Below, one piece after another: positions 8,794 to 32,478 of a DNA stretch of 32,478 bases (the stretch's first letter is position 1; each line of letters begins with the position of its first letter). Location: positions 1 to 32,478 of IMG/VR virus record IMGVR_UViG_3300033233_000120; one strand, given 5' to 3'. A program made the position numbers and the translations under genes. Source of the stretch: a virus. The notes under the pieces were generated by a model. The model was not told the DNA's origin. It ran no database searches and saw nothing but the letters and a program-made list of their open reading frames with translations.

Positions 8794-9091
8794 GCAAGAA
8801 AAACACGAGATATTGAACGAATTTGCTAAAAAGATTAAGAGCATATACGATGATGTTATAGACTTAAGCGAACAAGCCCAATTGGTTAATTATGCAACGA
8901 AAGATTTCATAGACGGATTTATAGATGGAGCACAAACTTTCAGAGACATGTTAATGGAAACAATCATAACAGACCATATATGCATAGAAGCAGATATAAA
9001 TGATATGAACGAATCACGGGAAGCATACCAGAAGTTTTTGAGTGTATACAAGGAGAATTTAAGGCGTATAAAGGACGGTGAATGGAAATGA
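8786..9091 (+). CDS. Small helical hypothetical protein
   Basis: 101 residues, GAGGAGG ribosome site, starting 8 bases inside the upstream gene. Predicted almost entirely helical, acidic, with no motif recognised (EFAKKIKSIYDDVIDLSEQA, GFIDGAQTFRDMLMETII). It is followed with overlap by an excisionase-like gene. Confidence 0.5.
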   Translation: MNKQEKHEILNEFAKKIKSIYDDVIDLSEQAQLVNYATKDFIDGFIDGAQTFRDMLMETIITDHICIEADINDMNESREAYQKFLSVYKENLRRIKDGEWK

Positions 9092-9288
9092 AGTGGGGAA
9101 ATGAAACAATTGATTTAACAAACTACCTATCAATTACGGACATTGTAAAACTTACAGGAATGCGAGAGTCGAAAATCAAGTATTACATTTACAGAGGGAA
9201 ATTAAAAGCCGTAAAGATTGGCTGGCAATGGTTTATAAAGAAATCTGACTTAGAGGAATTTTTAAAGAATTTTGAAAATGATAGGTAA
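9082..9288 (+). CDS. Excisionase/MerR-like winged-HTH protein
   Basis: 68 residues. The core YLSITDIVKLTGMRESKIKYYIYRGKLKAVKIGWQWFIKKSDLEEFL is the compact MerR-type HTH (HTH_17, excisionase family), with the recognition helix at residues ~25-36 and a W-W-F wing. Xis proteins bend DNA for excision, but no integrase is visible here, so a transcription-regulator role is at least as likely. It lies directly before the promoter and leader of the replication operon, which it could control. Confidence 0.7.
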   Translation: MEMKWGNETIDLTNYLSITDIVKLTGMRESKIKYYIYRGKLKAVKIGWQWFIKKSDLEEFLKNFENDR

Positions 9289-9294
9289 AAGGTC

Positions 9295-9322
9295 TTGGAT
9301 TTGTAGAAAACTTGAGTATAAT
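9295..9322 (+). promoter_or_regulatory. Promoter of the replication operon
   Basis: TATAAT at 9317-9322, with TTGGAT at 9295-9300 as -35 after a 16-base spacer. The -10 is part of ACTTGAGTATAAT (9310-9322), which recurs with one change at 15276-15288. Initiation would fall at about 9329-9331, exactly where the leader's first stem begins. Confidence 0.65.
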
Positions 9323-9330
9323 ATAAGTAA

Positions 9331-9394
9331 GAGTGAGGGAAGGGCTTGGGACTTGCCTCCTTCCCCCTTCCCCACTCCTAGGAAGGAAGGCAAG
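9331..9394 (+). promoter_or_regulatory. Structured leader RNA with two interlocking 13-bp helices
   Basis: Helix A: 9331-9344 with 9365-9377, 13 pairs and A9336 bulged. Helix B: 9352-9364 (in the loop of A) with 9381-9394, 13 pairs and A9387 bulged. Helix B contains the whole ribosome site AGGAAGGAAGG (9380-9390) of the gene starting at 9396. The 3-base gap 9378-9380 is too short to cross a 13-bp helix A, so both full helices should not coexist. That makes this a plausible on/off translation switch for the replication protein. The ligand or trigger is unknown. Confidence 0.65.
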
Positions 9395-9395
9395 A

Positions 9396-10364
9396 ATGGA
9401 TAACAAAAGCGAAGTTAACGAAGTCAAAGAGCCGTCAGAGAAGTATAACGGTAATCCTCAAGTAGAAGACGGGTTCACGAAAATCTCAAATGAACTTCTC
9501 GAGGCTTTATCTAAAGCGATGGCACAAGGTATTATCACGGCACGAGAGAGAGCGGTTATTGATTGGATAATCCGCTACACTTATGGATACCAACAAAAGA
9601 ATGGATACTTCCATACTTCTTTTATTGCAAAAAATCTTGGACTTTCAATGTCTTGGATATCGCAAATATTAAAAAGTTTAGAGAAGAAAAAAGTCATAAT
9701 TAGGAATGGAGAAGAAATTCAAATCAATAAGCATTATTTAGAATGGTCTAAATATTTAGAACCTTCTAAATGTTTAGAACACTCTAAACAGAATTTAGAA
9801 CATTCTAAACATTATTTAGAACCTTCTAAACAATCAGAGCCTACAAATTCAATTCTAGACAATGTTGAAGGGTTGCCTAAAGAAAACATATATAAAGAAA
9901 ACAATAATAAAGAAAACAAAAATCCGTATATACATACGGATAGCGATGTCTCAAATCCTTCTCTAACTGAAAAAGAAAAAGACTTAAAGGATACACCCCC
10001 CGTTGATATGCCCCCCTCAAAAGTGGCAAAGCCGAAAAAGGCGAAAGAGACTGGCGAAGTTCCTGGCACAGAGATTTTTAAACTCGTCAAAACTTTTTAT
10101 GAAATGGTGGGTTTAGTTTGGAATCAAAAAGACGCAATGGAAAAAAACTCAAGAGCGGCGTCAAAACTTCTTCACAAATATACTTATGATGATATCGTAA
10201 AATCTATAAGAATAGGTATCAAGGAATACAAGAATGAGAAAAAAGACCCAAAATATATGATGCCTACATTAGAAAGTGTTAATAAGCGTATACATGTTTG
10301 GCTCTCTGAAGAACAAGAGAACCAGCCTGAGCCCAAAAAGGAGGCAGGTTATGGCTACTTCTGA
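9396..10364 (+). CDS. Replication protein O-like origin-binding protein
   Basis: 322 residues; ATG 9396 follows AGGAAGGAAGG, and the upstream in-frame GTG/ATG codons lie inside the leader RNA. Residues ~25-110 (DGFTKISNELLEALSKA ... ARERAVIDWIIRYTYGYQQK ... FIAKNLGLSMSWISQILKSLEKKKVI) match the N-terminal winged-helix domain of phage replication protein O. The middle (residues ~114-150) is the translated iteron array (LEPSK/LEHSK repeats). A Lys/Glu/Pro-rich linker leads to a C-terminal helical domain (~225-310) that, by analogy with lambda O, would contact the helicase or loader. It overlaps dnaB by 14 bases. Confidence 0.85.
   Translation: MDNKSEVNEVKEPSEKYNGNPQVEDGFTKISNELLEALSKAMAQGIITARERAVIDWIIRYTYGYQQKNGYFHTSFIAKNLGLSMSWISQILKSLEKKKVIIRNGEEIQINKHYLEWSKYLEPSKCLEHSKQNLEHSKHYLEPSKQSEPTNSILDNVEGLPKENIYKENNNKENKNPYIHTDSDVSNPSLTEKEKDLKDTPPVDMPPSKVAKPKKAKETGEVPGTEIFKLVKTFYEMVGLVWNQKDAMEKNSRAASKLLHKYTYDDIVKSIRIGIKEYKNEKKDPKYMMPTLESVNKRIHVWLSEEQENQPEPKKEAGYGYF
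9737..9830. repeat. Five 16-bp palindromic iterons within the rep gene
   Basis: Copies of TTTAGAANNNTCTAAA at 9737-9752, 9755-9770, 9773-9788, 9794-9809 and 9815-9830; start-to-start spacing is 18, 18, 21 and 21 bases. Each is a near-perfect palindrome with a variable centre. The multiples of three keep the reading frame. Confidence 0.95.
9737..9941. other. Putative phage replication origin
   Basis: Origins embedded in the initiator gene with four or more iterons beside AT-rich DNA are the known arrangement in lambdoid O genes. Here the iterons (9737-9830) are followed by a very A-rich stretch (about 9875-9921), a candidate unwinding element. Then comes the inverted repeat ATCCGTA (9922-9928) / TACGGAT (9935-9941). 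The iterons are seen directly; the origin function is inferred. Confidence 0.8.
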
Positions 10365-11598
10365 ACTCAAACCGCTTCCGTATTCAGTCGAAGCGGAACA
10401 GTTTATTTTAGGTTGTATTTTGGCCTACGGTAAAGGTGGGGAAGAATTAAGCCCTCAAGACTTTTATTGGACAGAACATCAGACAATTTTCAAAGCAATT
10501 CAAAGTTTATGGTCTAAAAACATAGAACCCGACATTGTTTCGGTTATAGACGAACTTGGAGACAAACTCAAAGAAGTTGGTGGCGAATCGTATCTTATGC
10601 AACTTACTATGTCGATACCAACGGCGGTAAACCTACCTTATTATGTGAGAGTCGTAAAAGAAAAATCAGTCCTTAGACACGCTTTTGAACTCGGTGAAAA
10701 AATACAGGATTCAGCACTGTCTGGAGACTTAGATACTATAAGGCAAATCGGGTCGGAACTTTCAAATCTTTATATAGACGAGACTGAGAAACCTTTCGGA
10801 GAGACCCTAACTGAAGATGATTATAAACGGCTTGCAGAATCCAGACGCTGGACTTCAGACAACCTTTCGAAGTTAACTTATTTCATACCGTTTATGAGAG
10901 GCGAAAATATTTACATCGCTGGCAGGACGTCAACAGGCAAAACTCAAATCGCTTTAAATCTTGCGTTATCATTTCTTTTTCAAGGTGCGAAAGTTGGTTA
11001 TTTATCAATGGAACTTGGGAGAGAGCAACTTCTTATTAGACTAATCAATTGGGAATTTGGAGACGAACTTTCGCAAATCTCCCAGGGAACACCGCTTGCA
11101 AATATCAATTTAAAAGACAAAAAGTGGTGGGATGCTGGAATGGCTATTATAAATCAAGATGTGTTTAAGAATTTCTACTTCGTAGAAGAATACTCAGATT
11201 TAAGCGATATCGAAAATTGGATAGAGAGTCATAATTTCGATGTAGTTTTCATAGACTATATCCAACTTATTAAAACAAAAACCCGTTCAAGCCGTAATGA
11301 AGAGATGGAATATATCGCAAGAGAACTCAGGCGACTTTCAAAAAAGCGTTGTATTGTTATTCTCAGTCAGTTTAACAGAGCAAAAGAAGAAGACGAAACC
11401 GAGATTGACCTCTCAAGACTCCGAGACTCTGGGGCGTTAGAACAGACTGCGACTTCGGTTGTCCTTATTCGTAGAGATAAAGACGAGATAAACAAATTCT
11501 ATTACGCCGTTGCAAAGAACCAAACGCTTGGTGTTTTAAGCAACGGCTGGAAAAAGATGGTTTTAACTCCATCAGGGAAGTTTCAAGAGGACTTTTAA
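10351..11598 (+). CDS. dnaB: Replicative DNA helicase, DnaB family
   Basis: 415 residues from ATG 10351 (AAGGAGG upstream); the in-frame extension to 10276 lies inside the rep gene and is unlikely. Residues ~8-105 are the DnaB N-terminal domain (LPYSVEAEQFILGCIL). The RecA-like C-terminal domain has Walker A G191-R-T-S-T-G-K-T198, Walker B near residue 300 (VVFIDYIQLI), and the arginine and sensor region SQFNRAKEEDETEIDLSRLRDSGALEQTA. It forms a hexameric 5'-3' helicase that unwinds the phage fork and is probably loaded by the O-like protein. It is slightly shorter than host DnaB (~440-450). No separate loader gene is seen. Confidence 0.95.
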   Translation: MATSELKPLPYSVEAEQFILGCILAYGKGGEELSPQDFYWTEHQTIFKAIQSLWSKNIEPDIVSVIDELGDKLKEVGGESYLMQLTMSIPTAVNLPYYVRVVKEKSVLRHAFELGEKIQDSALSGDLDTIRQIGSELSNLYIDETEKPFGETLTEDDYKRLAESRRWTSDNLSKLTYFIPFMRGENIYIAGRTSTGKTQIALNLALSFLFQGAKVGYLSMELGREQLLIRLINWEFGDELSQISQGTPLANINLKDKKWWDAGMAIINQDVFKNFYFVEEYSDLSDIENWIESHNFDVVFIDYIQLIKTKTRSSRNEEMEYIARELRRLSKKRCIVILSQFNRAKEEDETEIDLSRLRDSGALEQTATSVVLIRRDKDEINKFYYAVAKNQTLGVLSNGWKKMVLTPSGKFQEDF

Positions 11599-13345: not shown

Positions 13346-13558
13346 ATGAAAAAGGTTAATTTGCAAGAATTTTTTGAGGGGACTATGCCATTAGATATTA
13401 GCGATATCGGAACCTTGATACATCGTGAGATATCCGATTTTTTGTCTACTGAGACACCACATATCAATTGTAGATGTCCAATACTTTTCGAAGATAGTTT
13501 TAAAGACAAAGATTTTAAAGACAAAGATAAAACAAAGAAAAAAGGAGGCAATAAATGA
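13346..13558 (+). CDS. Small hypothetical protein with charged tail
   Basis: 70 residues, TGGAGGGACG ribosome site. The N-terminal half (LQEFFEGTMPLDISDIGTLIHREISDFL) may be helical. A Cys pair C-R-C is at residues 43-45, and the C-terminus is a near-repeat of charged residues (FKDKDFKDKDKTKKKGG). First gene after the putative promoter at 13297; the stop overlaps the HNH gene. Function unknown. Confidence 0.5.
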   Translation: MKKVNLQEFFEGTMPLDISDIGTLIHREISDFLSTETPHINCRCPILFEDSFKDKDFKDKDKTKKKGGNK

Positions 13559-30624: not shown

Positions 30625-31592
30625 GAATTTATGACTCAAACGGAAACTTACAATACTCGGACATTTTGGGAGAATTAAATCTCGGGAAATATGTAAGGAA
30701 TATAACAATTGACAACTCCTCTAATGCAAGTTCGCTTACAAATTATCAAGTTTTAATCACCGTAGACACTGCAACTCTAATCTCGGCTGGGAAAATGCGT
30801 TCTGATTGCGGGGATATAAGGTTTTATGATCAAGCGAATAATCTGAGTTACTGGATAGAAAGCGGAATAAATACATCATCAACAAAAATTTGGGTAAAGG
30901 TTCCTTCTATCCCAGCAAGTTCTACAAAAGTAATTCAAATGTATTATGGGAATCCGAACTTGACAAGTGCAAGCAGTGGAGATGATACGTTTTTGCTCTT
31001 TGATGATTTTCTGGGGAGTTCATTAAATACAAATAAATGGACTTTAGCAAGAATCTATGGCACAGGGAATTATTCTGCAACCGTCTCAAACGGGTATGTT
31101 GAGATATTTGGAGATACTAGCACATCGGTGGCAATAACCTCAAAACTTGGGACATCTTTCCCTTTTGCGATAGAGGGCTCGTGGAAAGAAAATACTGGCG
31201 ACAATTGGCATCATTTCACGCAGACAGCAGGTGGAAGCGATAGTGACTGGGTAAGGGTTGGATATTCAGGCGGGACTTTCTATTATCAAAAAAGAACAAG
31301 CGGGACTAACACTACCTATCAGTCTTTTTCTCGAACTGCTCCGACTGCCTGGACGAGAATATCTATTCAGGTGACATCGAGTTCTGTAAAATATTTTGAA
31401 AACGGCACGCAAGTGAACTCTACAACTACGCAAGACAGATATACGAGTGGAACAAATTACATAATGTTTTCTGTCTACAATAGTGCTAAATCTGATTACG
31501 ACTGGATAGCACTACGAAATTTTACACCTACCGAGCCTACTACAACTGTAGGGAGTGAGGTTAATTTTACACAGACTTTAAGGGTTAAATGA
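30621..31592 (+). CDS. DUF2341 / concanavalin-like tail adhesin, complete
   Basis: 323 residues, GGGAGTTGAGAG site. Residues ~25-125 are DUF2341 (YVRNITIDNSSNASSLTNYQ ... DIRFYDQANNLSYWIES ... IWVKVPSIPASSTKVIQMYY, GNP). Residues ~130-315 are a LamG/concanavalin-like domain ending in DYDWIALRNFTPTEPTTTVG. Both are linked to carbohydrate or surface binding. It is followed by the 18-residue-repeat gene with ATGA coupling. The 1-652 copy is its diverged counterpart. Confidence 0.85.
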   Translation: MRIYDSNGNLQYSDILGELNLGKYVRNITIDNSSNASSLTNYQVLITVDTATLISAGKMRSDCGDIRFYDQANNLSYWIESGINTSSTKIWVKVPSIPASSTKVIQMYYGNPNLTSASSGDDTFLLFDDFLGSSLNTNKWTLARIYGTGNYSATVSNGYVEIFGDTSTSVAITSKLGTSFPFAIEGSWKENTGDNWHHFTQTAGGSDSDWVRVGYSGGTFYYQKRTSGTNTTYQSFSRTAPTAWTRISIQVTSSSVKYFENGTQVNSTTTQDRYTSGTNYIMFSVYNSAKSDYDWIALRNFTPTEPTTTVGSEVNFTQTLRVK

Positions 31593-32478
31593 CACAAGAG
31601 GAATTTGATTTATTATACTGGCTTGGAGTTGTAGACTTGATTGACCTCGCACTTGTTGAGGCGGGTGTAAATATATTTATTTCTGATTCTCTTTCAGGAA
31701 GCGAAAATATAAATATTTTGAATTCTTTTGGAGTTTCTGATTCAGGAACAGGACTTGAAAGCGGGGACTTCTCAAACTCGTTTAGTCTCCAAGATTCGGC
31801 GGTTGGAACGGAACTTCTTTTACTCACTCTGTTTAAAGAAATTTCGGACTCAGTCGGGGGGCTTGACGACTTAACAATGCAAAATGCATTCGGACTTACG
31901 GACTCTGGAACGGGAAATGATGATATAGCCTTACTCTTAGAAAAACTAATCTCGGATTCAGCGACTGGAACTGATTTACTAAATATACTCAACAATTTAA
32001 GTGTTTATGACCTTGCAACAGGTATCGAAAATGTAATACAAATTCTTAACAACCTCAATATTTTAGATGCCTCAACGGGTGTTGAAATAATCAATCTAAT
32101 CGTAAACCTCGGGCTTTTAGATTCGGCAGTCGGAAGCGAAATATTTTCTATTCTTTCAAGCGTAGCGATAAGCATAGCAGATTCGGTTTTAGGTTCAGAG
32201 AGTTTAAGTATTTCAAATGTATTACAAGTTAACGACTCAGCAAGCGTTTATGAAATCATTGAGGCTCTAAATTTATTAAACTTAAACGACTTCCTTTCAG
32301 GTTCAGACTTCATAGATGTAAGCAGTTTGATTCAAAAACTTATTTCGGACTCAGCAGTCGGTTCAGAAATTCTTTCAGTTTTAAATGACTTAAGACTTCA
32401 AGACAATGCAACGATATCAGAGATAATCGGAATACTTACGACTTTATCAATCTTAGACAACCTTATCGGACTTGATAA
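30950..32478. repeat. Right copy of diverged terminal repeat (adhesin locus)
   Basis: Pairs with 1-1478 through the whole span. The coordinate offset is 30949 at the start and 31000 at the end, accounted for exactly by a net 9-base loss in the DUF2341 gene and a 60-base gain in the repeat gene. Confidence 0.9.
31589..32478 (+). CDS. 18-residue-repeat tail/adhesin protein, 3'-truncated allele
   Basis: Open to the window end (about 296 codons, no stop). It is nearly collinear with 649-1478. It holds one extra 20-residue unit (DFLSGSDFIDVSSLIQKLIS, about 32287-32350) absent from the left copy. Units again run D-S-x-x-G-x-E-x-L-x-I-L-N-x-L. The C-terminal Lys/Asn-rich end would lie beyond the window, or at 1479-1656 if the genome is circular. 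Confidence 0.8.
   Translation, partial: MTQEEFDLLYWLGVVDLIDLALVEAGVNIFISDSLSGSENINILNSFGVSDSGTGLESGDFSNSFSLQDSAVGTELLLLTLFKEISDSVGGLDDLTMQNAFGLTDSGTGNDDIALLLEKLISDSATGTDLLNILNNLSVYDLATGIENVIQILNNLNILDASTGVEIINLIVNLGLLDSAVGSEIFSILSSVAISIADSVLGSESLSISNVLQVNDSASVYEIIEALNLLNLNDFLSGSDFIDVSSLIQKLISDSAVGSEILSVLNDLRLQDNATISEIIGILTTLSILDNLIGLD

What the first reader, a model, noticed from the sequence alone, without database searches (positions are those of the whole stretch)
9331..9394. Interlocking helices that can hide the ribosome site of the replication gene
Two 13-bp helices, each with one bulged A, are arranged as a pseudoknot topology, with the loop of A containing one arm of B. A 3-base connector makes both together unlikely, so a switch is inferred. 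Helix B buries the full ribosome site of the O-like gene. This is a candidate undescribed riboregulator, perhaps temperature-, protein- or antisense-controlled.
Basis: partly seen in the sequence, partly recalled or inferred. Interest (0 to 1): 0.75.

Follow-up and report, generated by a model that had tools for sequence, protein, structure and literature searches.

The report
Knotted RNA leader on replication operon
The messenger RNA that starts this phage's DNA-replication operon begins with two interlocked RNA helices, one of which covers the ribosome-binding site, and related phages have rewritten both helices while keeping the base pairing, so this looks like a real, undescribed RNA control element rather than a chance fold.

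Summary
Helix A (9331-9344/9365-9377) and helix B (9352-9364/9381-9394), 13 bp each with one bulged A, are the only interlocked pair of that size in the window; shuffles gave none. Four related phages, all from one metagenome, keep the place and promoter but show three leader types. Helix B has 7 variable pairs, all double compensatory changes (39/39 cells Watson-Crick). Helix A has three compensatory pairs between types 1 and 3. The first gene downstream differs (O-like, DnaD-like, or a DUF559-like nuclease), so the leader belongs to the operon, not to one protein. A conserved TTGGAT/TATAAT promoter puts the inferred start at 9329-9330, so helix A caps the mRNA. Without pseudoknots, A is about 8 kcal/mol better than B and leaves the ribosome site open; deleting A's 5' arm lets B close it. 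A and B share no nucleotides; full A plus full B is sterically impossible, but partial combinations fit and are roughly as stable as A alone. Best reading: a cis-acting translational control pseudoknot, open early, throttled later. A thermometer, riboswitch or terminator is not supported; antisense control is untested. No Rfam family matches.

The parts
9295..9300 (+). -35-like hexamer TTGGAT (weak match to TTGACA)
   Evidence: identical in all five phages while the spacer varies; not listed by the stricter consensus scan
9317..9322 (+). -10 hexamer TATAAT, 16-nt spacer; inferred start of transcription at 9329-9330 (AAGA...)
   Evidence: identical in all five phages; start site inferred from spacing, not measured
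9331..9344 (+). helix A, 5' arm (bulged A9336)
   Evidence: pairs with 9365-9377; identical in four phages, re-written with compensation in L011
9365..9377 (+). helix A, 3' arm
   Evidence: as above; duplex -22.8 kcal/mol
9348..9361 (+). predicted upper stem of hairpin A (GGGA 9348-9351 / TCCT 9358-9361) with apical loop CTTGCC 9352-9357, which is the start of helix B's 5' arm
   Evidence: minimum-energy fold, with counterparts in types 2 and 3
9352..9364 (+). helix B, 5' arm
   Evidence: pairs with 9381-9394; 7 of 7 variable pairs are double compensatory changes across three leader types
9381..9394 (+). helix B, 3' arm, containing the Shine-Dalgarno stretch (AAGGA 9383-9387, AAGG 9387-9390; bulged A9387)
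9378..9380 (+). 3-nt connector; the only leader difference between window and L007 (T9379 to C)
9396..10364 (+). first gene of the replication operon, lambda O-like replication protein
   Evidence: PF04492 E 2.2e-18; phrog_277
10351..11598 (+). second gene of the operon, DnaB-like helicase (overlaps the end of the O-like gene)
9082..9288 (+). upstream small helix-turn-helix gene that ends before the promoter; conserved in the phages whose upstream DNA is held
   Evidence: PF12728; 94-96% identical

Best explanation
This is a cis-acting translational control leader at the 5' end of the phage replication-operon mRNA. The RNA starts at about 9329 and folds a strong hairpin (A) first, because both arms of A are made before the ribosome site. 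The apical loop and 3' flank of hairpin A are complementary to the ribosome site of the first gene (helix B), so A and B form an H-type pseudoknot with stems too long to be complete together. Full A plus the AUG-proximal 6-7 pairs of B, or the upper 8 pairs of A plus all of B, can coexist. The leader therefore moves between an open form (hairpin A alone, ribosome site free, favoured right after synthesis) and a closed form (pseudoknot, or B alone when A is damaged), which limits and times production of the replication proteins. Shown here: the helices, their co-variation, RBS overlap, position next to a conserved promoter, and independence from the identity of the first gene. Inferred: transcription start, pseudoknot formation in solution, and the effect on translation and timing.
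For: Unique interlocked pair, none in shuffles. Three leader types at the same place in five phages; helix B 39/39 cells paired with 7/7 variable pairs doubly changed, and lower helix A 3/3. Own arms pair at -16 to -22 kcal/mol against -10 to -16 for arms taken from different types. Type-1 leader 67/67 and 66/67 identical in L004 and L007 although the neighbouring gene is only 84-86% identical. The frame of the in-frame GTG extension is lost in L005 and the GTG is absent in L011, so the conservation is at RNA or DNA level and not coding. Strongest RBS complement of 51 ORFs. A folds before the RBS is made and leaves it about 90% unpaired; removing 16 nt from the 5' end drops this to 7%. Partial pseudoknots fit the loop lengths and score -27 to -31 kcal/mol with a 9.6 penalty against about -28 to -31 for A alone in the same leaders; for type 3 only the full-A plus B form does.
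Against: No experiment. Only three independent leader types, all from one metagenome. Pseudoknot energies rest on a generic penalty and an idealised helix, and differences of 1-3 kcal/mol decide which form wins. In nested models the RBS is open by default, so repression depends on the pseudoknot or on loss of A. Type-3 helix B is weaker (about 4% of shuffles reach it). The -35 hexamer is poor.
Confidence: 0.6

Rival explanations
1. Strict two-state switch as first proposed, sensing 5'-end integrity or a trans factor: hairpin A is the default ON state; when A is lost (5' trimming, a start site further downstream, a bound factor) helix B snaps shut on the ribosome site.
For: A beats B by about 8 kcal/mol in nested folds; deleting A's 5' arm closes the RBS at every temperature from 25 to 70 C in types 1 and 2; A sits at the inferred 5' end of the mRNA.
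Against: A and B share no nucleotide, whereas sequestor and anti-sequestor arms of classical switches overlap (general knowledge); the arrangement allows partial coexistence. No sensor domain or trans factor identified.
Confidence: 0.2
2. Allele-specific control: a trans-acting antisense RNA or similar factor recognises the loop, and leader types mark mutually non-interfering groups, as loops do in plasmid copy-control RNAs.
For: Discrete leader types: within type 1 the leader is 99-100% identical, but it is re-written between window and L005 although the flanks are about 95% identical. Loop-to-RBS geometry resembles the target hairpins of antisense-controlled rep mRNAs; in the IncK plasmids, which are controlled by such an antisense RNA, one nucleotide of it decides compatibility (PMC10724649).
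Against: No antisense promoter-like site across the leader in window, L005 or L011; no extended second copy in the window or the parts of L005 and L011 held (longest 11 nt); sequence downstream of ATG is not shared by L011, so a shared antisense promoter there is unlikely.
Confidence: 0.1
3. RNA thermometer: helix B melts as temperature rises.
For: Thermometers show little sequence conservation (PMC4166951), as here; nearest terminase is from a Thermoanaerobacterium phage (59% identity), so a hot habitat is possible.
Against: RBS exposure changes only 0.86 to 0.96 from 25 to 70 C in type 1, and B-only stays closed at 70 C; known thermometers use weak, imperfect helices; habitat unknown.
Confidence: 0.07
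4. DNA-level element: overlapping palindromes as operators or part of an origin, with the RNA helices incidental.
For: Inverted repeats lie just downstream of a promoter; each leader type could match its own DNA-binding protein.
Against: Arm lengths and bulges fit RNA helices ending exactly at the RBS; symmetry is not that of a dimer site; the neighbouring HTH protein is 94-96% identical across leader types; an origin-like repeat array lies elsewhere, at 9737-9838.
Confidence: 0.03

Closest known systems
Phage lambda cIII mRNA bistable leader
   Same: phage early mRNA with two alternative structures, one covering the ribosome site (PMC4166951)
   Different: here the helices share no nucleotides, form a pseudoknot topology, control a replication operon, and show little predicted temperature response; no sequence relation
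I-complex plasmid repZ/repA leaders (ColIb-P9 type)
   Same: replication-initiator mRNA in which a hairpin loop pairs with a distant RBS region to make a pseudoknot that sets replication (reference titles listed in PMC10724649; mechanism otherwise from general knowledge)
   Different: there the pseudoknot activates translation, needs leader-peptide translation and is antagonised by a known antisense RNA; here the loop covers the RBS itself, no leader peptide is conserved and no antisense RNA was found
timP mRNA pseudoknot; MS2 maturation leader and aapA3 transient structures
   Same: mutually exclusive or transient mRNA folds, including a pseudoknot, decide ribosome access (PMC11228461; PMC6733600)
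   Different: toxin or RNA-phage genes; no similarity of sequence or layout
Pseudoknot riboswitches that hide the Shine-Dalgarno site (preQ1-II, SAM-II; own knowledge)
   Same: H-type pseudoknot whose second stem contains the RBS
   Different: no conserved ligand pocket, sequence re-written between types, no Rfam match

Membership tests
SD-sequestering translational control leader (general class) | a helix covering the ribosome site, kept by compensatory change | tested here: met
SD-sequestering translational control leader (general class) | changes in the helix alter translation | not testable with these tools
   needs reporter or toeprint
lambda cIII-type bistable leader | two mutually exclusive structures of similar stability, temperature- or Mg-dependent | tested here: not met
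   nested energies differ by about 8 kcal/mol and hardly shift with temperature; pseudoknot forms not covered by this test
I-complex repZ-type leader | antisense RNA transcribed across the loop | tested here: inconclusive
   no promoter-like site on the opposite strand; consensus scan only
I-complex repZ-type leader | translated leader peptide coupled to rep | tested here: not met
   no leader ORF kept in all types; GTG9333 frame lost in L005, absent in L011
known riboswitch or other Rfam family | match to a covariance model at gathering score | tested here: not met
RNA thermometer | RBS helix opens over a physiological temperature range | tested here: not met
   nested predictions only
intrinsic terminator or attenuator | GC-rich hairpin followed by U-run | tested here: not met
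   no U-run after A or B; none predicted at the leader of the window
H-type pseudoknot | loop lengths can span the stems | tested here: met
   for partial stems only (8 nt over 8 bp; 10 nt over 13 bp); full A plus full B excluded by the 3-nt connector

The most novel reading that the evidence does not exclude
A phage replication-timing RNA that comes in discrete specificity types: loop and ribosome site diversify together so that a cognate trans-acting RNA or factor distinguishes co-infecting relatives, the phage counterpart of plasmid incompatibility groups.
Probability: 0.1. Interest if true: 0.8.

Novelty: new variant of a known kind. Interest (0 to 1): 0.52.

Why it matters
Replication-gene dosage decides phage burst timing, and RNA-level control of a lambda-like O/P-type operon by a covarying pseudoknot leader is not a described arrangement as far as the library and Rfam searches here show. 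The leader is kept while the replication gene behind it is swapped, which makes it a module. Its three natural variants provide ready-made compensatory pairs for testing over-long, mutually straining pseudoknot stems as a timing device.

Tried and rejected
Coding extension from GTG9333: rejected, because the frame is lost in L005 and the GTG is absent in L011. Terminator hits L006 and L008, found with the helix-A pattern: unrelated terminators. Known RNA families: none. More distant relatives by helicase, HTH, early-gene and replication-protein scans: only the same four contigs of one sample have the leader; genome contigs gave only 25-30% identical helicases, whose leaders were not examined. 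DNA search of named phages: none. Host and habitat: not resolved. Autoregulation by the first gene's product: unlikely, since leader type and gene type are shuffled (type 1 with O-like and with DnaD-like; O-like with types 1 and 2). The first version of the groove geometry had the sign of the strands in doubt; both signs were run and the conclusion does not depend on it.

Full report
OBSERVATION. Helix A is GAGUG-A-GGGAAGGG (9331-9344) with CCCUUCCCCACUC (9365-9377). Helix B is CUUGCCUCCUUCC (9352-9364) with GGAAGG-A-AGGCAAG (9381-9394). Each has 13 Watson-Crick pairs and one bulged A, the connector is 9378-9380, and ATG is at 9396. No other interlocked pair of 9 bp or more exists in the window under the same rules; 30 whole-window shuffles gave none at 11 bp or more and 3000 local shuffles gave none at 10 bp or more. 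The pairing is not explained by purine/pyrimidine composition alone in types 1 and 2, and 9396 has the strongest RBS complement of 51 + strand ATG ORFs.

CONTEXT. The window is a 32,478-base virus record with terminase, portal and capsid genes. The leader lies between a small HTH gene (9082-9288) and an O-like replication gene (9396-10364, PF04492), followed by a DnaB-like helicase (10351-11598). A TTGGAT-16-TATAAT promoter (9295-9322) is conserved in all five phages, with a variable spacer. It implies a start at A9329/A9330, so helix A begins 1-2 nt from the 5' end. This start is inferred, not measured.

RELATIVES. Scans of viral contigs with the O-like protein, the HTH, the helicase, an early gene, the alternative replication protein and two DNA patterns all led to the same four contigs of one metagenome, 3300033233. 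Three leader types exist. Type 1 is the window, L004 and L007: L004 has 67/67 leader bases identical and L007 66/67, the difference lying in the connector, while the HTH gene next door is 84-86% identical. Type 2 is L005 (the same contig as L002): helix A is identical and helix B is CUCACCGCCUUUCU / AGAAAGGC-AA-GGUGAG. Type 3 is L011 (the same contig as L162): both helices are re-written, AGAACAGGG..AGGG / CCCU..CCCUGUUCU and CGCCUCCUCUUU / AAAGA-UUG-GGAGGCG. In a hand-made structural alignment helix B has 39 of 39 Watson-Crick cells and 7 of 7 variable pairs doubly changed; the lower part of helix A has 3 of 3. Own arms pair far better than exchanged arms in most combinations (B: -21.7, -21.9, -16.1 against -10.2 to -15.7 kcal/mol, the type-1 loop with the type-3 RBS being close to type 3's own; A: -22.8, -20.8 against -11.9, -15.5).

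WHAT IS SHARED AND WHAT IS NOT. The first gene behind the leader differs: O-like in window and L005; a DnaD-like loader in L004 and L007; a DUF559-like nuclease followed by a DnaD-like loader in L011. Leader type and gene type are shuffled, so binding of the first gene's own product to a sequence in the leader is unlikely. The open frame from GTG9333 in type 1 is lost in type 2, and the GTG is absent in type 3, so the conservation is not coding.

MECHANISM. In nested folding, hairpin A (with a short upper stem and apical loop CUUGCC) forms as soon as nt 49 is made and beats any structure lacking A's 5' arm by about 8-12 kcal/mol at 37 C. The RBS is then about 80-96% unpaired at 37 C; deleting 16 nt from the 5' end reduces this to 7-13% in types 1 and 2 and to 40% in type 3. 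Taken alone, this would make A an anti-sequestor and the default state open, the reverse of 'hidden'. But A and B share no nucleotides, and A's apical loop is exactly the segment complementary to the RBS hexamer next to the AUG, so pairing of loop and RBS on top of A is the natural third state. An idealised A-form model shows that the 3-nt connector cannot cross 13 bp (33 A or more needed). Ten nt can (full A plus the outer 7 bp of B), and 8 nt can cross 8 bp (upper A plus full B), whichever groove is assigned. With a generic pseudoknot penalty of 9.6 kcal/mol these partial pseudoknots score -27 to -31 kcal/mol, comparable to A alone; in type 3 only the full-A form does. I therefore favour a translational control pseudoknot with over-long stems that compete end to end: A first and open, then closing by B pairs, giving limited and timed synthesis of replication proteins. 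The effect on translation is inferred.

RIVALS. A strict A/B switch that senses 5'-end integrity is the nearest rival. Temperature control is poorly supported. Allele-specific antisense control would explain the discrete types, but no antisense promoter or copy was found. Terminator, known riboswitch and coding explanations fail.

KNOWN RELATIVES BY MECHANISM. Closest in working principle are the lambda cIII leader (PMC4166951), the ColIb-P9/IncI repZ pseudoknot (cited in PMC10724649), timP (PMC11228461) and the transient folds of MS2 and aapA3 (PMC6733600). It fails tested defining features of the first two, so it is filed as a new variant of translational control leaders and not as a member of those families.

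LIMITS. There are three types, one metagenome, no experiment, generic pseudoknot energies and an unmapped transcription start. Host and habitat are unknown.

Noticed in passing
1-1475 and 30950-32475: The two ends of the record carry an 87-92% identical direct duplication (a tail-like gene and a repeat-rich gene, judged by eye); perhaps adjacent paralogous receptor genes in a circular genome, or an assembly effect.
   Followed up: partly
9737-9838: Inside the O-like gene lies an array of short inverted and direct repeats (TTTAGAAC..TTCTAAA), the place where lambda-type phages keep their origin iterons.
   Followed up: partly
9396-10350, compared with L004, L007, L011: The replication initiator/loader gene is exchanged between O-like and DnaD-like versions between a conserved leader and a conserved helicase; the first codons and the last few codons (KKEAGYGYF) are kept across the swap in several phages.
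   Followed up: partly
L007 8022-9299: L007 carries a more diverged DnaB-like helicase (54-56% identity) although its leader is of the same type as the window's.
   Followed up: no
L007 reverse-complement coordinates 13352-13439: A second, longer-range interlocked pair of 10-bp helices appears under the looser bulge rule; not examined and possibly chance.
   Followed up: no
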